From Syncephalis plumigaleata (lineage: Eukaryota > Zoopagomycota > Zoopagomycetes > Zoopagales > Piptocephalidaceae): a DNA stretch of 20,090 nucleotides. A program made the translations under genes and the position numbers. Shown piece after piece: positions 1,240 through 15,857 of this stretch (within the stretch, counting starts at the first letter, position 1; the number at the start of each line of letters is the position of its first letter). The DNA lies in assembly GCA_025201365.1 (NCBI GenBank), contig JAIXMF010000257.1, forward strand, positions 1 to 20,090, given 5' to 3'. The notes below the pieces were generated by a model. That model saw only the letters and a program-made list of their open reading frames with translations, was not told the DNA's origin and made no database searches.

Positions 1240-2012
1240 CTACATATACTCGGCTTCCCACAGATCACGATTGTAATTTTCTATTAGATCCGTGGTATCT
1301 TTAAACTTTGCCTGCCACAAAGCGAATCCACCTCGTAGAACGAGTACTTGCTGCGTTATACTACTCGTAGCATCGCTGTCATCCTTAGCACCCTTAGTAT
1401 TCCTCATTTGCAATACTGTCTGATGATATATACCCGCTGAGGTTGGTCCTCGAACCTGAGAGAGAGCACAATGGAAAATGATCCTAGGTACGTGCGCGTA
1501 TTCTTTAATTAAACTTGGTAACTGTTCCAGCAATCGGTGTGATGGTACATTGATGGCCGAAACAATGTTGCCGCCCTCAAAGTCATCGTCTCTCACGTCG
1601 ATAATCACATAGTCAACGCTAAATAAGAATCAATAATACATATACATATACATATACATGCACGTCAATCATCGATGGTAAACATCCGTAGAATTGCTAC
1701 CCATTCTTACCGTGGAGTGAGTTCGCGATTACGCAATAGACTGGCTAACTCGTCGCTGTCGATATACTCTACGGTATTCTGACCCGAACAATGGCTGAAT
1801 ATTGTCATGGTCATTCTATGTAATATAGGCGAGCTACTATGAATAGCTCTAGGAAAAGGCAGGTACACGCGACTTGAGGAATTACCAATTAATTTAGTTG
1901 TTCCACAATAACCACAACTGTAACTACTACTGCTACTACTGATAGGCGACAACCTACGATATGATAAATAAGAGTAAAAATAATTAAATAGTCTTGTTCG
2001 CTTAAGAAGCAT
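1240..2012 (-). CDS. YCH1: Rhodanese-domain Cdc25-like phosphatase of the Ibp1/Ych1/Acr2 family
   Basis: Two exons, 2012-1711 and 1618-1240, join across a 92-bp intron with a GTAAGA donor and TTTAG acceptor, giving 226 residues. The rhodanese fold is visible from about residue 78: VEYIDSDELASLL, then VDYVIIDVRDDDFEGGNI, and the active-site loop HCALSQVRGPTSA. In that loop Cys151 and Arg157 form the C-x5-R phosphatase signature; LRGGFALWQ follows near the C-terminus. Family members (S. pombe Ibp1, S. cerevisiae Ych1) are small cytosolic or nuclear protein phosphatases related to Cdc25 and arsenate reductase Acr2; the exact substrate cannot be read here. Known members are about 140-160 residues, so the first 66 residues are an extension: basic and Ser/Tyr-rich at first, with almost no acidic residues. 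Translation from Met67 (ATG at 1814) would give the family-sized protein. The intron carries a short CATATA repeat. Confidence 0.92.
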
Positions 2013-2871: not shown

Positions 2872-4854
2872 TTATGCAGTTTGTTGCGCGCGTTTAATGC
2901 CAAAGTAAGGAATCTGTACTGCTTTAGTCGATGGCACTAAACTGCAAGTTGCCTGTGGATCAATGATGATGTAGCCGGAATACAACCAGTCCTCATTGGT
3001 TGGTAGTCCTGATGGTTCTACAAATGTAGCGTGAATGATTACCTCCTTGTTTGGTTTTATCGTTACTACATTGGGATGGAATTCTACACTGGCATAATGA
3101 TGTTTGTACTGGTTGGCGTTAACGTCACCATTAGCATGCGTTTGTGCATTTGGATTTGCAGGAATTGTGGCTGCACCACGAGAATAAATACAGTATACGC
3201 GCTCTTGTTTGCTGTTGTTAGTGATGCTTATCCGTTCGGAATGGCCATATATAACATTACTGTTCAATTTTAGACGATTCAATAATGGTATTACCGTTGG
3301 TGACACTATAGTGTTCAGTTGTACCATGTTAAAGACATTAACCATGCCAGCACCTTGATGCACCACCGGGTCTAGTGCGTCACTGAGATGGGATGCAATT
3401 GGATAGGCCGAGCTTTGTAGCAGTGCCTTGATCACCACGACATTGAGTGATTTCCTAGGGTATAGTTGTAATAATAATGCGAGCGTACCAGCTAGATAGG
3501 CTGTTGCCGCGGATGCACCACTATAGTAGCCATACATCTGCTTAGTTTGCGACAGATACGTGGTAAATAAGTGATAGCCAGGTGCTAAAATATCTACATC
3601 AAGTTTCGAGTAATCTGAAGCGAGTGTGTTTACGTTTATACGCATTTTCCCTATTTCATTAGTGAAGCCTGCATCTCCAAAGAAGTTAAGCCTAGTTCGT
3701 GGATCGATCCAGAGCTGTTTAACGATCTTCCTGGCGTCCTCGTGAGTAATGGCAATGACAGGTATTGGACATGAGGATAAAGGCTTTACTTGCTCGTTTA
3801 CCTCCACGGCTATAATGACACCTATGGCGCCTTTTCTCGCGGCAGCCTCCATGACAGTCGATGGCTTGCAGCCCTTTGCCATTAGTAGTGCAATCTTGTT
3901 CTTTACATTGTTGCGTATCATACACTTATCACCATTTGGCACGGCATTAACAATCTCCACTTCCACCTCTCCTAGTTCAATGTTCTTGAAGAAGCAATAG
4001 GATTGATAGGTGATGGGCGCGCTAATGTCATTACCCAGCCAGAACCATTGCGACATATGATAGGGAATTTCCGCGGCACCCACTGAGATTAGTTCAGCAC
4101 CAGCCAGTGAGACCATATCCATGCCTTGAATATCGATATTCCTATTGTCACCGGCTGGTGCTACGACGATGATATTCTTGTCGGCCGCAATCTTGATCAT
4201 GTTTTTCATTTTTAGATGATTTTTACGGGTGTATACGATACTGGGAAGCACGATGATATCCATGTTATCCTTAATAGCTCGTTCCAGCGCATTCAATACA
4301 ACACTAGACTTTGTCGTTCCTTGACATCCAAATACACGGTAGATGCCAAGCGTTGTATTCGGAGCAATTCCCTTAAACATGGACGTATTTGAAATGACGA
4401 GACCCGCCATATTCGTGCCACTTCCCTTGCAGTCGACGGGTGCAGCATTCGTGGGGTATGGCACGTTCAAACCATTATAATTCTTGCCTACAAAGTCAAC
4501 GTTATACTTTGAGGTTAGCGGATGAAGTTCTAGATTTGGTGTAAATGCTTCGTGTTGATAATCGAGACCAGAATCGATAATGCCCATCTTGATACCGCTG
4601 CCATCCAGATTGGCGAGCGAGTGTACCAGATCAACTCCTGTTATGTCGTGTATGGTGTATGGTTTTATATATTTCCCCGAGAACAAAGATTGGTAAAGCG
4701 GACCATCATTCGTGAATGTCAGTTTATACCCGCTAAACCCTCCATCGCCAGCGTTATAGCTGACATACCGCCACGGATTGTATACATTGGTGGGGGAAAC
4801 ATGCTCCGCTTGGAGTAAAAGTGCAACTGATACAATAAACTTCAATGTACGCAT
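2872..4854 (-). CDS. Secreted subtilisin-family (S8) protein with PA insert; catalytic His and oxyanion Asn lost (probable pseudoprotease)
   Basis: One uninterrupted reading frame of 660 residues. It has a secretion signal (about residues 1-20, hydrophobic core IVSVALLL), then a subtilase domain split by a protease-associated (PA) domain (about 285-395, with KIALLMAKGCKPSTVMEAA and KGAIGVIIAVE). A C-terminal beta-rich region follows, probably the fungal Fn3-like domain of large subtilases (about 525-655). The Asp box is normal: MGIIDSGLDYQ, Asp94. The His box, normally GHGTHVAG, reads GSGTNMAG, so the catalytic His is Asn148 (codon AAT) and the preceding structural His is Ser145. The oxyanion-hole Asn of the AGN motif is Asp236 (APAGDN). 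The Ser box, normally GTSMAAPHVAG, reads GASAATAYLAG: Ser448 is kept but the following Pro is lost. Fold and length are otherwise intact with no stop or frameshift, so this looks like a maintained, proteolytically inactive protein rather than a decayed gene. It lacks introns, unlike most neighbours. Confidence 0.93.
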   Translation of the reverse strand: MRTLKFIVSVALLLQAEHVSPTNVYNPWRYVSYNAGDGGFSGYKLTFTNDGPLYQSLFSGKYIKPYTIHDITGVDLVHSLANLDGSGIKMGIIDSGLDYQHEAFTPNLELHPLTSKYNVDFVGKNYNGLNVPYPTNAAPVDCKGSGTNMAGLVISNTSMFKGIAPNTTLGIYRVFGCQGTTKSSVVLNALERAIKDNMDIIVLPSIVYTRKNHLKMKNMIKIAADKNIIVVAPAGDNRNIDIQGMDMVSLAGAELISVGAAEIPYHMSQWFWLGNDISAPITYQSYCFFKNIELGEVEVEIVNAVPNGDKCMIRNNVKNKIALLMAKGCKPSTVMEAAARKGAIGVIIAVEVNEQVKPLSSCPIPVIAITHEDARKIVKQLWIDPRTRLNFFGDAGFTNEIGKMRINVNTLASDYSKLDVDILAPGYHLFTTYLSQTKQMYGYYSGASAATAYLAGTLALLLQLYPRKSLNVVVIKALLQSSAYPIASHLSDALDPVVHQGAGMVNVFNMVQLNTIVSPTVIPLLNRLKLNSNVIYGHSERISITNNSKQERVYCIYSRGAATIPANPNAQTHANGDVNANQYKHHYASVEFHPNVVTIKPNKEVIIHATFVEPSGLPTNEDWLYSGYIIIDPQATCSLVPSTKAVQIPYFGIKRAQQTA

Positions 4855-5219: not shown

Positions 5220-5849
5220 ATGCGTCCATTTACGACTTTGGTGACTATTGGCTTGCTTGCCGCTTTATTGCCCTATGCCACGGCATTGCCTACAGGCGAT
5301 TCTTTAACTGGCCCTGCACAAACCACCACCAATAACGATAACAATAATAACAATAATATTAATAGTAATAGACGTCCGCGATTAATGCCAGCATCCAATG
5401 CAGCTCTCTTAAATGATAATCAACCACCTGCGCAACCACTTCTAATGGCTTTGGCGACTCGCAATAATCAAGTGCTACCGCAATTTTTACGCGAGCCACC
5501 ACAACTCCCATCCAGGCCACCACGAGTTCCATCCAAGCCACCACGAGTTCCATCCAGGCCACCGCGAGTTCCATCCAAGCCATCACGAATTCCATCCGAA
5601 CCAGTACTACGCCCGTCCAATCCATCGCAACTTTCACGCGAGCCACCACAACTTTCACTCGGACCACCGCTACTTCCACTCAGACCATCAAAACTTGAAT
5701 CCAAGCCAGTACTAAGCTCAGTCCCGATGACACGAACTTCAGCCCCACAACCACGACTTACTAGACGTCCTGCACTTGCTCCACCAGATGCTGATGCGAT
5801 AAAACTAGGTCAGTTTAATTTACAAAAGCCAAAAGAGGACAAGGAATAG
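5220..5849 (+). CDS. Secreted proline-rich heptad-repeat protein, function unknown
   Basis: Uninterrupted frame of 209 residues. It starts with a clear signal peptide (MRPFTTLVTIGLLAALLPYA, cleavage probably near residue 22). An Asn-rich low-complexity stretch follows (about residues 38-50, from AAC/AAT triplets), then eleven consecutive seven-residue units spanning residues 88-164. The best-preserved units read RVPSKPP or RVPSRPP; later units drift (QLSREPP, QLSLGPP, LLPLRPS). The C-terminus is short and charged (KPKEDKE). There are no cysteines and no recognisable catalytic domain. The many Pro, Arg, Lys and Ser residues fit an extended cell-wall or extracellular protein, possibly O-mannosylated; that is inference. 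I do not recognise a family. AATAAA at 5881 lies about 30 bp after the stop. The gene is divergent from the subtilase-like gene. Antisense ORFs over the repeat are by-products of its period. Confidence 0.75.
   Translation: MRPFTTLVTIGLLAALLPYATALPTGDSLTGPAQTTTNNDNNNNNNINSNRRPRLMPASNAALLNDNQPPAQPLLMALATRNNQVLPQFLREPPQLPSRPPRVPSKPPRVPSRPPRVPSKPSRIPSEPVLRPSNPSQLSREPPQLSLGPPLLPLRPSKLESKPVLSSVPMTRTSAPQPRLTRRPALAPPDADAIKLGQFNLQKPKEDKE
5481..5711 (+). repeat. Eleven-copy 21-bp tandem repeat encoding Pro-rich heptads
   Basis: Eleven in-frame 21-bp units. Those from about 5502 to 5585 are nearly identical (core CCACGAGTTCCATCCAAGC) and the outer copies have diverged, as expected when recent expansion happens in the middle of an array. 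The units encode x-(V/L)-P-S-(K/R)-P-P and variants. Confidence 0.9.
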
Positions 5850-8807: not shown

Positions 8808-9665
8808 ATGGCAACCAATCAACATTCGGAGCGTAAGGTGGTACTGCTCACCGGTTGTAGTTCGGGCGGTATCGGTGCCTATATGGCATTGGAGTTCGCC
8901 AGCAACAACTGTATCGTGTACGCTAGTGCTCGTCGACTGGAAGCCATGACGGAACTAGAGCCACACGGTATTCATACACTAAGCGTGGATGTCACCAAAG
9001 AGGAAACGATGCAGGCTGCCGTCAACACTGTCATCGAGAAAGAAGGCCGTATCGATATCCTCGTGAATAATGCTGGTTTATCGCGTACCGCTCCTTTAAT
9101 CGAGCAAGATTTGAATACGGCTCGCAGGGTGTACGACGCCAATGTATGGGGCCTACTAAGAATGTCGCAGATTGTCGCTCCTCATATGATGAAGCGTCGC
9201 TCGGGTAATATCGTCAATGTGTCATCGATCGTTGGCGTGGTTCCCATTCCCTGGTCTGGTATCTACGCTTCGTCAAAGGCCGCCGTACGTTCCATGTCGG
9301 ATATCATGCGTATGGAATTGCTGGGATTCAACGTGAACGTTACAAACGTGTATCCCGGATCTATCAAATCCAATATTGCCCAGAATAGTAGTCAAGAGTT
9401 TGAGTGGAAGGAGGACAGTTTGTACGAGGCGTATAAGCAACGCGTTGAAGAGCGAGTATGGTTATCGCAGCAAAAAGGTTGTACGCCAACCGATGATTTC
9501 GCCAAAGCAGTCGTGGCTAAACTGTTGCAATCCTCACCACCACGCGAGATTTACTACGGCAAGCATTCCACCATATTTTGGTTACTTTCATTTTTGCCGG
9601 GCTGGCTCACCGATCGACTACTCCTCAAACGATTTGGTCTATTACAACAACAACAACAACAATAA
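8808..9665 (+). CDS. AYR1: NADPH-dependent 1-acyl-dihydroxyacetone-phosphate reductase-like short-chain dehydrogenase
   Basis: Single-exon frame of 285 residues with a classical SDR fold. The cofactor loop is TGCSSGGIG (residues 15-23), NNAG is at 87-90, the catalytic Ser is Ser140 in VNVSS, and the catalytic Tyr/Lys are Tyr153 and Lys157 in YASSK. After YASARRLEAM (38-47) an Arg-Arg pair follows beta-strand 2, consistent with NADP preference. A C-terminal hydrophobic stretch (TIFWLLSFLPGWL) fits the ER or lipid-droplet attachment of Ayr1 proteins. Ayr1 reduces acyl-DHAP to lysophosphatidic acid in glycerolipid and ether-lipid synthesis; sub-family choice over other SDRs is likely but not proven. 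The protein ends in six Gln encoded by CAA repeats that run directly into TAA TAA TAA TGA. AATAAA lies at 9773. It is convergent with ATM1. Confidence 0.9.
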   Translation: MATNQHSERKVVLLTGCSSGGIGAYMALEFASNNCIVYASARRLEAMTELEPHGIHTLSVDVTKEETMQAAVNTVIEKEGRIDILVNNAGLSRTAPLIEQDLNTARRVYDANVWGLLRMSQIVAPHMMKRRSGNIVNVSSIVGVVPIPWSGIYASSKAAVRSMSDIMRMELLGFNVNVTNVYPGSIKSNIAQNSSQEFEWKEDSLYEAYKQRVEERVWLSQQKGCTPTDDFAKAVVAKLLQSSPPREIYYGKHSTIFWLLSFLPGWLTDRLLLKRFGLLQQQQQQ

Positions 9666-14444: not shown

Positions 14445-15857
14445 CTAACAATGATGATGACGCTTAGCGGGATTACGTGGAATCCAACCTTCCTCGACAC
14501 CAAGAAGATAATCCCATTGTGGTGATTCCTCCGTCTTGAAATTCCAAAAGAACCAGCCTCGTCCCGCTTCATACGCGTCCATTTGTAGTTCTGCAAATCG
14601 ACGTAACCAAGCGCGATATTCAGGCGTGAATGACGACACGTCATTGTGGCCATCGCATGTGCCATTCTCGTGAATAGGACGACCATTACGAGCGGGGAAT
14701 GTTCCATCCCAGCGTGCGCCCACTTTAAATCCATTAAGCCATTTAGCGCAGTCATTTGTAGCCAGTGACCTAATTCACCATTAACAACAACAACAACAAT
14801 AAGCATGTTATTTCTCTTAACTTACCATTCTCCTACAATGACCGGATAATGTTCGGCTGCAGCTTGGAGTTCCTTACGTTTAGCACATACAGTGTTGGCA
14901 TGTCCATCCTTGTCCATGCCTAGCAAGTCATCCATAAACACTTGATAATGATGTGTATCCAGCATGAGGTTGTCATTATTATGCTTGTTCATGAAATCAT
15001 TCCACTGATGAATCGGTAGGAATGCATCGGCCACGACAATCGACTGTTCGCCTCCCATTAGTTCACGCAGGCTACCAATGCTTTCGTCGTAAAAGTTTCG
15101 TACGACATTCATGTCGAGACTCCAGTGGGCCGGTTCATTCACCAGTTCAATGCCCACTACATTGCTATACGCGTTGGTGGAGAATTTTCGCGCCAATTGA
15201 CGTAGTACACGGATGGAGCGATGTACATTATTCATGTTGCTAGTCCAAGCGGCGACACCCTTCTTCCCGCTATTGTCGAATCCATTCTGCGAACCGGGCA
15301 CACCGTGTAGATCAATAATAACCCGTATGCCGTATTGATCGGCCCAGTTAATACCGCGTGTCAAATACTTGAGCTGTCCCTGCACCCATGGCTCGTGTCG
15401 TTGCTTTTCTACTGCCCAGTAACCAACCGGGATACGTACGTGATTGATACCGGCATCGGCAAGACGACGGAAATCATCCTCGGTCACCCATGTCTTCCAG
15501 TGGTGTTTAAGCTGTCGTTCGGCTTCCTTACGACCTAGACGCGTGCAGAATGACCATTCATCCTCGGTCTGACTCTCGAGTGGGCCCGATTCGAATTGTT
15601 CGAATAGACTGGGTGTAATCCCTATTAGATAGATAGATCATGGATGACATACCAATGATTAGTCGAGAATGATCTAACGAGACATTATTTTCAAATGGAA
15701 TACACATCTATGTGTATGTATGTGTGTATGATCACTTACAGGGTTCGATCACTAGCCAACCACCAAGATTGACACCTCGAATTGGTTCTTGCGCCACTAC
15801 TAAGACACTGCTAATCAGCAGCAAGGCGGCTACTTTGAATGACGAGGCAAATATCAT
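14445..15857 (-). CDS. EXG1: Secreted glucan 1,3-beta-glucosidase (exo-beta-1,3-glucanase, GH5)
   Basis: Three exons, 15857-15740, 15621-14826 and 14769-14445, with introns of 118 and 56 bp, give 412 residues, typical for the family. A signal peptide (core VAALLLISSVLVVA) is followed directly by [20 protein letters not shown], the N-terminal GH5 exo-glucanase signature. Other landmarks are HVRIPVGYWAV, IIDLHGVPGSQNGFDNSG, the acid/base Glu202 in ELVNEP, the DTHHYQVF loop (261-268) and the nucleophile Glu304 in VGEWS, where the second intron splits the Trp305 codon. The C-terminal GWFFWNFKTEESPQWDYLLG and GWIPRNP blocks are complete. The enzyme removes glucose from the non-reducing ends of beta-1,3-glucan in the cell wall or medium. 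AATAAA lies about 50 bp past the stop (14393-14398). A truncated paralogue lies at 6133-6228. Confidence 0.96.

What the first reader, a model, noticed from the sequence alone, without database searches (positions are those of the whole stretch)
2872..4854. A full-length secreted subtilase whose active site has been dismantled
The subtilase frame is open for 660 residues with an intact signal peptide, PA insert and C-terminal domain, yet the His box reads GSGTNMAG (His to Asn148, and the neighbouring His to Ser145) and the oxyanion Asn is Asp236. Asp94 and Ser448 remain, but the Ser box has also lost its Pro. At least four independent active-site changes in an otherwise unbroken gene argue for selection on a non-proteolytic role, such as ligand binding, inhibition, or decoy for host or prey inhibitors. 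Inactive subtilases are little described in fungi.
Basis: partly seen in the sequence, partly recalled or inferred. Interest (0 to 1): 0.72.

Follow-up and report, generated by a model that had tools for sequence, protein, structure and literature searches.

The report
Fungal clade of dead secreted subtilases
A fungus carries a family of secreted proteins that still fold like protein-cutting enzymes but have lost parts needed to cut, which suggests that they were kept for another job, probably binding something outside the cell.

Summary
Correction: the catalytic His is the first His of GHGTH, so the decisive change is His to Ser145; Asn148 is non-catalytic and varies in paralogues with full triads. 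Asp236 replaces the oxyanion Asn; Asp94 and Ser448 remain. Both assembled haplotypes share these changes.

It is not a one-off. In its genome it falls in a clade of seven triad-defective loci (97/91), nested in a larger clade (100/100) without I9 propeptide and long C-terminal extension (propeptide undetected in 9 of 9 triad-intact and 6 of 6 defective rows; found in 8 of 9 canonical rows). All seven have Pro for the substrate-strand Ser204. Haplotype dN/dS is 0.60 for this gene alone (p=0.16, not significant), 0.45 pooled over five defective pairs (p=7e-5). AlphaFold gives a subtilase fold.

Best reading: a maintained, secreted pseudo-subtilase that binds rather than cuts; propeptide loss came first and may have freed export from self-cleavage. 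Ligand unknown; the remodelled strand weakens the inhibitor-decoy idea; slow decay is not excluded. Pseudo-subtilases are known (CspC); my searches found no such fungal clade in print.

The parts
2872..4854 (-). Open reading frame of the pseudo-subtilase, 660 aa
   Evidence: Pfam
4792..4854 (-). Signal-peptide-like N-terminus, about residues 1-21 (MRTLKFIVSVALLLQAEHVSP); judged by eye, no predictor run
   Evidence: helix 2-16 in the model
4657..4791 (-). Residues 22-66: short linker where related canonical subtilases carry an I9-type propeptide; no propeptide match here; 18-66 has pLDDT under 50
   Evidence: (E 3.6)
3382..4602 (-). Subtilase (Peptidase_S8) domain, residues 85-491, interrupted by the PA insert
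   Evidence: coordinates
3724..3936 (-). PA domain insert, residues 307-377
   Evidence: coordinates
2905..3237 (-). Fn3-like C-terminal domain (fn3_5), residues 540-650
   Evidence: coordinates
4573..4575 (-). Asp94 (GAT), catalytic Asp position, kept
4420..4422 (-). Ser145 (AGT) at the catalytic His position
4411..4413 (-). Asn148 (AAT), second, non-catalytic His position
4237..4245 (-). Pro204-Ser205-Ile206 at the place of the substrate-binding strand; Pro204 shared by all 7 rows of the defective clade
4147..4149 (-). Asp236 (GAC) at the oxyanion Asn position
3511..3513 (-). Ser448 (TCC), catalytic Ser position, kept
3499..3501 (-). Ala452 (GCC) in place of the Ser-box Pro

Best explanation
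A secreted pseudo-subtilase: an S8-PA-Fn3 protein exported by a signal peptide that folds as a subtilase but cannot perform the normal Asp-His-Ser reaction, and is retained for a binding role. Shown: domains and predicted fold; loss of the general base (H145S) and of the oxyanion Asn; the same state in both haplotypes; placement in a clade of triad-defective paralogues; no detectable I9 propeptide in the surrounding clade; pooled purifying selection on defective pairs. Inferred: (1) an ancestor with an intact triad lost the I9 propeptide and the long C-terminal extension and came to fold without them; (2) this freed export from autocatalytic self-cleavage, so active-site losses no longer blocked secretion; (3) in one subclade the substrate strand changed (S204P, in six of seven rows as Pro-Glu) and triad residues were lost piecemeal, differently by lineage; (4) the remodelled cleft and/or PA face now bind an extracellular protein or peptide. 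The ligand is not identified.
For: Triad readout: of 37 ORFs of at least 500 aa from own-genome loci, 10 (5 haplotype pairs) lack a triad residue and 27 keep it (in one of these, L027, the Asp lies outside the ORF read); three loci fetched later (L069, L230, L231) are also defective, L230 read at Ser and oxyanion positions only. Tree with bacterial outgroup and the four active-site boxes removed: seven defective loci form one clade, 97/91; the six other than the query 100/99. Propeptide HMM, canonical rows scored with themselves left out: E at most 2e-12 in 8 of 9 canonical rows; E at least 0.058 in 9 of 9 His148-less triad-intact rows and at least 0.25 in 6 of 6 defective rows. All 16 Pfam I9 matches in the genome lie within about 520 bases of S8 matches, none at these loci (one search read). 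S204P in 7 of 7 rows, Ser in 17 of 18 triad-intact rows. dN/dS of five defective haplotype pairs 0.445, p=7e-5; no indel in the query's CDS between haplotypes against 16 internal indel events in the flanks compared. AlphaFold pTM 0.77; Foldseek top hits C5a peptidases and cucumisin. Plant subtilases need autocatalytic prodomain removal for secretion (passages of PMC11203471).
Against: This gene's own dN/dS is not significantly below 1 (0.60, p=0.16). Outside the boxes it keeps 22 of 35 near-invariant positions, against 30-35 of 34-38 in 18 triad-intact rows: constraint is relaxed. Of 20 derived-conserved columns of the defective clade, the query itself shares only 8, and two of the seven rows (L059, L230) are nearly identical around Pro204, so they count as one. 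I read open frames of at least 500 aa, so their openness is no evidence. No expression data, no orthologue, no ligand. Prodomain-less plant phytaspase is unstable and not secreted, so this clade must fold another way, which is not shown.
Confidence: 0.67

Rival explanations
1. Slow decay: a gene family that outlived its use; the active site went first and the frame has simply not yet been broken.
For: Query-only dN/dS 0.60, p=0.16; relaxed retention of near-invariant residues; some relatives have stops inside their matches (e.g. C103:17k and C373:874k, one TGA each; C79:201k, four), which may be introns or damage; the ORFs that I read were picked for being open.
Against: Five defective pairs pooled lie below 1 (0.445, p=7e-5), no higher than five triad-intact pairs of the sister group (0.60; difference not tested). 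The defective neighbours C103:14k and C103:17k differ at dS 0.97 and dN 0.45 over 387 codons, one pair with patches of gene conversion. Pro204 is shared by all seven rows.
Confidence: 0.15
2. Bodyguard decoy: the dead protein soaks up host, prey or competitor protease inhibitors and so protects the fungus's active subtilases, as PsXLP1 does for PsXEG1.
For: The genome carries many triad-intact subtilases that would profit (27 of 37 ORFs read, haplotypes counted); the fold is predicted to be kept. Precedent: passages of the decoy review PMC5814044.
Against: Canonical inhibitors bind the substrate cleft (recalled). In all seven rows of the defective clade the substrate-strand Ser is Pro, unlike what an inhibitor sponge should keep. 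The nearest triad-intact paralogue is only 30-32% identical.
Confidence: 0.13
3. Altered catalysis: Ser448 still acts, with a His supplied by the substrate (substrate-assisted catalysis, recalled from engineered subtilisin) or a rearranged acid network (Asp at the oxyanion position as in sedolisins, recalled).
For: D94 and S448 are kept in the query, unlike in most of its sister rows; N236D matches the sedolisin residue at that site (recalled).
Against: No Glu or Asp stands at 145 or 148; the oxyanion Asn is lost; the substrate strand is changed; the sister loci read at those positions have lost Asp and Ser.
Confidence: 0.05

Closest known systems
Pyrolisin-type S8A subtilases with PA and Fn3-like domains (streptococcal C5a peptidase ScpA/ScpB, cucumisin, SBT3, Vpr)
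   Same: Fold and domain order; Foldseek best hits 8bty, 3eif, 3vta, 3i6s; best sequence hit 8jmw, titled Vpr
   Different: Intact Asp-His-Ser triad, oxyanion Asn and, in the secreted ones, a propeptide (recalled); the query lacks the His and the oxyanion Asn and shows no propeptide
CspC and CspA, subtilisin-like pseudoproteases of Clostridioides difficile (PMC6636752, passages)
   Same: S8 fold with triad residues lost; a non-catalytic role in spore germination
   Different: Bacterial spore proteins; CspC keeps an uncleaved prodomain and has a jelly-roll insert, whereas this clade shows no propeptide and the query carries PA and Fn3 domains
PsXLP1 bodyguard decoy (PMC5814044, passages)
   Same: Inactive secreted paralogue of a secreted hydrolase in a filamentous microbe
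   Different: Truncated glucanase; here a full-length subtilase with a changed substrate strand
RALPH effectors of powdery mildew, RNase-like proteins (PMC6464244, listing and start of abstract)
   Same: An expanded family of secreted proteins on a hydrolase fold; the pseudoenzyme character is recalled
   Different: Different fold; a role in infection is claimed there and unknown here
Batrachochytrium S41 subfamily lacking the catalytic Lys (PMC5567314, passage)
   Same: An expanded protease subfamily of early-diverging fungi lacking a catalytic residue
   Different: Family S41, not a subtilase
Zoopagomycota subtilase expansions (PMC6784888, section 11 and passages) and Entomophthorales 'group C' subtilases without I9 (PMC6169396, passages)
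   Same: Early-diverging fungi; S8/PA/fn3_5 expansions forming their own group; group C lacks I9
   Different: Section 11 says nothing on catalytic residues; group C has no other Pfam domain than S8 and, by the authors' filter, a complete triad

Membership tests
Peptidase family S8 by homology (Pfam PF00082) | Significant match to the subtilase domain | tested here: met
   93 bits against cut-off 21.8
Active S8 peptidase | Asp-His-Ser triad | tested here: not met
   Asp94 and Ser448 kept, His is Ser145
Active S8 peptidase | Oxyanion Asn | tested here: not met
   Asp236 by alignment; the neighbouring loop 237-251 is low-confidence in the model, so a shift to Asn237 is not excluded
Active S8 peptidase | Peptidase activity | not testable with these tools
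   needs purified protein
Pyrolisin-type S8A architecture | PA insert in the S8 domain and Fn3-like domain behind it | tested here: met
   PA 27.5 bits (cut-off 23.9), fn3_5 33 bits (cut-off 27.6); fold hits ScpA, cucumisin
Secreted pre-pro-subtilase | I9-type propeptide between signal peptide and S8 domain | tested here: not met
   own HMM E 3.6 in the query; E at most 2e-12 in 8 of 9 canonical rows
CspC-type pseudo-subtilase | Triad loss in an S8 fold | tested here: met
CspC-type pseudo-subtilase | Retained prodomain | tested here: not met
   no propeptide match; CspC keeps its prodomain
CspC-type pseudo-subtilase | NCBIfam CspC_non_triad model | tested here: not met
   17.4 bits against a cut-off of 675
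Bodyguard decoy | Binds an inhibitor of an active paralogue more tightly than the paralogue does | not testable with these tools
   indirect evidence against: substrate strand changed

The most novel reading that the evidence does not exclude
A propeptide-first route to a secreted pseudoenzyme family: once a fungal subtilase lineage learned to fold and leave the cell without its I9 propeptide, catalysis became optional, and one subclade radiated into extracellular recognition proteins on a dead protease scaffold, with a new conserved Pro-(Glu)-Ile element where substrate once lay.
Probability: 0.38. Interest if true: 0.8.

Novelty: new variant of a known kind. Interest (0 to 1): 0.6.

Why it matters
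Surveys of fungal subtilases filtered out S8 proteins with defective triads. One removed sequences with ambiguous alignment around the triad as pseudogenes (PMC5371821, passages). One removed proteins with 2 of 3 catalytic residues replaced (PMC5567314, passages); that rule would have kept the query itself, which lost one, but not its more degenerate relatives. One removed incomplete triads as potential pseudogenes, while noting that some may be neofunctionalised (PMC6169396, passages). A maintained clade of secreted pseudo-subtilases would therefore largely have been overlooked. If real, it is a natural case in which the order of events (propeptide lost, then catalysis) can be read from paralogues in one genome, and it makes testable whether propeptide loss permits pseudoenzyme evolution by uncoupling secretion from self-cleavage.

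Tried and rejected
Rejected: my own first reading that all 24 rows with a changed residue 148 are dead. Position 148 is the second, non-catalytic His; 14 of those 24 rows keep the full triad. Corrected in notebook entry 3, and the statistics were recomputed. The pooled 0.398 over 10 'pseudo' pairs is superseded.

Rejected: NG86 dN/dS without transition bias as the final figure (0.42 for the query, Fisher p=0.044). With the transition/transversion ratio of the flanks, 2.17, it is 0.60, p=0.16.

Dropped before counts: of the pairs listed, those of L006 with L007 and L008 and the five under 90% identity (L028/L040, L028/L041, L029/L040, L029/L041, L040/L041) were left out of the pooled dN/dS. The trees use 21 of the 37 ORFs (one per near-identical pair; L006 stands for L007 and L008). 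L017 (canonical boxes) and L058 (His148 to Leu, triad intact), split genes read in pieces, are in no count. Of 73 homologous stretches prepared, 49 went into the alignment.

The organism was not identified. PMC8778642 and PMC7804941 (passages) say nothing specific on dead subtilases; the latter counts 91 non-peptidase homologues of all families in Aspergillus niger, so dead protease homologues as such are no news. Literature: pseudoprotease + subtilase + fungi found 0 papers; six phrases around 'inactive subtilase' found 6 papers, none about a fungal subtilase family by title, start of abstract or, for two, passages.

Not done: exons of split genes were not joined; unread family members (for example C112:334k, C340:687k, C373:677k, C329:768k) may be alive or dead.
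Full report
WHAT IS THERE. The open frame lies on the minus strand, 4854 to 2872, 660 codons from ATG to stop. Pfam gives Peptidase_S8 (residues 85-491), PA (307-377) and fn3_5 (540-650). The N-terminus MRTLKFIVSVALLLQAEHVSP looks like a signal peptide (by eye). Eight Cys and three N-glycosylation sequons suit a secreted protein. AlphaFold2 on the window protein with 49 homologues (47 from prokaryotic genome contigs, 2 from viral contigs) gives mean pLDDT 75 and pTM 0.77; residues 18-66 and the loop after the oxyanion position (237-251) are unreliable. Foldseek's best PDB hits are C5a peptidases (E 7e-29, TM 0.56 on the query length, rmsd about 8 A), other streptococcal S8 proteases, cucumisin and SBT3, i.e. 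PA/Fn3 subtilases.

ACTIVE SITE, CORRECTED. In G-H-G-T-H-V-A-G the catalytic residue is the first His (subtilisin H64; recalled). The data agree: in the alignment, column 145 is His in 18 of 18 triad-intact rows, whereas column 148 is A, M, K, G or R in 9 of them; an archaeal homologue reads GHGTAVAG (L080), and a survey lists HGT/S followed by H, F or A for pyrolisins and HGTR for kexins (PMC5371821 passages). The query therefore has catalytic His to Ser145 (AGT), oxyanion Asn to Asp236 (GAC), and Asp94 and Ser448 kept; the Ser box reads SGASAATA, with Ala for Thr447 and for Pro452.

TWO HAPLOTYPES. The window is contig C176 of a 32.6-Mb assembly in 383 contigs. A second copy lies at C1:2937341-2939320, 98% identical over 660 residues, frame intact, with identical codons at 94, 145, 148, 236 and 448. 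The two differ at 13 residues, none of them at these positions. Between them the CDS has 22 substitutions and no indel in 1,983 bases; 16 internal indel events fall in the flanks compared, which include parts of neighbouring genes (two further gaps there are ends of the stretches). Fourteen further pairs of ORFs with 93-99.6% protein identity look like haplotypes; some may be recent duplicates.

A FAMILY, NOT A ONE-OFF. The own-genome search gives 94 Peptidase_S8 matches and 70 matches to the query protein, exon by exon, with haplotypes counted twice. I read 37 ORFs of at least 500 aa from the 60 loci delivered by those two searches and later L069, L230 and L231. Of the 37, 27 keep Asp, His and Ser (13 with His148, 14 without; in L027 the Asp lies outside the ORF read). 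Ten do not: the query pair (H to S), C341/C112 (D to S; S to D or N), C46/C50 (S to D; oxyanion to Y), C362/C40 (D to G, S to D) and C103:14k/C373:871k (D to E, H to R, S to F). The three extra loci are defective as well: C373:540k (D to G, H to K, S to A), C373:769k (D to G, H to R; no Ser in the box by eye) and C103:17k (S to C; its Asp and His were not read). By my count these are about 8 canonical, 9 His148-less triad-intact and 8 defective loci. Because only open frames were picked, openness proves nothing. Proteinase K-like genes (e.g. L016, L025, canonical boxes) lie outside this set. Members that I could not fetch may be of any kind.

TREE. With the four active-site boxes removed and two bacterial homologues as outgroup (26 rows), all rows without His148 form one clade (100/100). 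Inside it seven defective loci, the query included, are one clade (97/91); the other six are 100/99 with the query as sister. C46/C50 joins them only weakly (79/56). End branches are long (median 0.88) and one row (L231) is 27% filled, so fine placement is uncertain. Two of the sister six (C341, C362) keep His but have lost Asp and Ser; the query lost His and keeps Asp and Ser. So the triad losses seen differ by lineage; the common ancestor may have been compromised otherwise.

PROPEPTIDE AND TAIL. A profile of the N-terminal region of eight canonical rows (6 fungal, 2 bacterial), each scored with itself left out, finds all eight at E at most 2e-12 (for a search of 24 sequences). It misses L003 (short ORF), 9 of 9 His148-less triad-intact rows (E at least 0.058) and 6 of 6 defective rows (E at least 0.25). 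By eye, most of these rows begin with a hydrophobic stretch in the same frame, so a propeptide in an upstream exon is unlikely for the query; L028 lacks a clear start. From the first Met to the Asp column there are 159-209 residues in canonical rows (L003: 79), 91-144 in the middle group (L028: 43) and 62-93 in the defective rows; after the Ser column 327-441 (L003: 66), 215-235, and 194-212 (L051: 68). Independently, Pfam I9 has 16 matches in the genome (weakest E 0.08); read, all 16 sit within about 520 bases upstream of S8 matches and none at the defective or His148-less loci, though Pfam I9 is blunt and misses several canonical members. Propeptide loss thus maps before triad loss.

WHY THE ORDER MATTERS. 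In plant subtilases an inactive precursor cannot cleave its prodomain and is trapped in the cell, and a prodomain-less form is unstable and not secreted unless helped in trans (passages of PMC11203471). A lineage able to fold and leave the cell without a propeptide would no longer need catalysis for export. This is inference; how this clade folds is unknown, and no free-standing I9 gene was seen.

SELECTION. With a transition/transversion ratio of 2.17 from the flanks, haplotype dN/dS is: query alone 0.60 (13 nonsynonymous, 9 synonymous; p=0.16); five defective pairs pooled 0.445 (50 to 46; p=7e-5); five His148-less triad-intact pairs 0.60; five canonical pairs 0.16. So this gene alone proves nothing, the defective group is constrained, and it looks no less constrained than its triad-intact neighbours (difference not tested). 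The defective neighbours C103:14k and C103:17k differ at dS 0.97, dN 0.45 over 387 codons, with a near-identical patch that suggests gene conversion. Retention of near-invariant residues outside the boxes is 22 of 35 in the query and 11-24 of 31-34 in the other five complete defective rows, against 30-35 of 34-38 in triad-intact rows: clearly relaxed compared with active enzymes.

A NEW MOTIF. In the seven-locus clade the substrate-strand Ser (column 204, Ser in 17 of 18 triad-intact rows; its role is recalled from subtilisin S125) is Pro in 7 of 7, followed by Glu in 6 of 7 (Ser in the query) and Ile in 6 of 7. L059 and L230 are nearly identical here, so the seven are six independent readings at most. 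Trp270 is present in 6 of 6 rows with a letter, but also in two triad-intact rows (L012, L021). In all, 20 columns met the criterion for derived and conserved, and the query shares the clade's state at 8 of them: it is the least derived member. Conservation of a new state where substrate used to bind, across rows about 30% identical, points to a new use of the cleft and away from a decoy that must mimic it.

WHAT IT WORKS LIKE, AND WHETHER IT IS ONE. It works most likely as a binding protein on a protease scaffold, as CspC does. It is a homologue of the S8 family with pyrolisin architecture but fails the tests for an active S8 peptidase and for a pre-pro-subtilase, and it is not CspC-type (no propeptide match; NCBIfam CspC model 17 bits of 675). 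The ligand stays open.

LITERATURE. Ten searches were made. PMC5371821, PMC5567314 and PMC6169396 (passages) filtered out degenerate triads. PMC6784888 (section 11 and passages) reports subtilase expansions in mycoparasitic Zoopagomycota with the same three domains, and heterozygous genomes in that group, which makes such a source plausible but unproven. Inactivated subtilases in Nicotiana benthamiana are presented as signs of a contracting proteome (PMC6778390 passages), a reminder that dead subtilases can be mere decay.

VERDICT. Observation confirmed with a corrected catalytic residue. Interpretation partly supported. The finding grows from a single odd gene to a clade, but function rests on inference. 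On rechecking, I lowered the main confidence from 0.70 to 0.67, raised slow decay from 0.12 to 0.15 and lowered the novel case from 0.40 to 0.38, because the frames were selected for being open, two of the seven motif rows are near-copies, and the query shares only part of the clade's derived residues.

Noticed in passing
own-genome loci L004, L012, L021, L022, L028, L030, L040, L041, L055 (and L058 in pieces): Subtilases with a full triad but no second His (A, M, K, G or R at column 148; L in L058) and, in the nine rows tested, no detectable I9 propeptide or long C-terminal extension; whether they are active proteases is open.
   Followed up: partly
window 5220-5849, plus strand: Divergently placed 209-aa Pro-rich repeat protein with a signal-like N-terminus (by eye), no Pfam hit; 97% identical copy beside the C1 haplotype, two weak matches elsewhere (C135, C73).
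   Followed up: partly
L059/L230 (C103:14k and C103:17k): Tandem defective subtilases with a patch of about 80 codons nearly identical inside otherwise diverged genes, suggesting gene conversion.
   Followed up: partly
L070 (Symbiobacteriaceae MAG) and L084 (Georgenia MAG): Bacterial S8 proteins that group with the fungal rows (100/100) apart from the other six prokaryotic rows; possible old transfer or shared ancestry.
   Followed up: no
   Followed up: no
L040 (C1:2181k) and L041 (C7:23k): Two loci 78% identical, dS 0.31, with Ala and Lys at column 148; either diverged haplotypes or a duplicate pair.
   Followed up: no
window 14822-15487, minus strand: Part of a GH5 exo-1,3-beta-glucanase gene; all 14 PDB hits at E 1e-10 or better but one rutinosidase are named glucanases, glucosidases or XOG1 (that XOG1 is from Candida is recalled), in line with a fungal source.
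   Followed up: partly
window 1240-1608 (-) and 8808-9665 (+): Neighbouring genes: a rhodanese-like domain and a short-chain dehydrogenase; nothing that points to the role of the subtilase.
   Followed up: no
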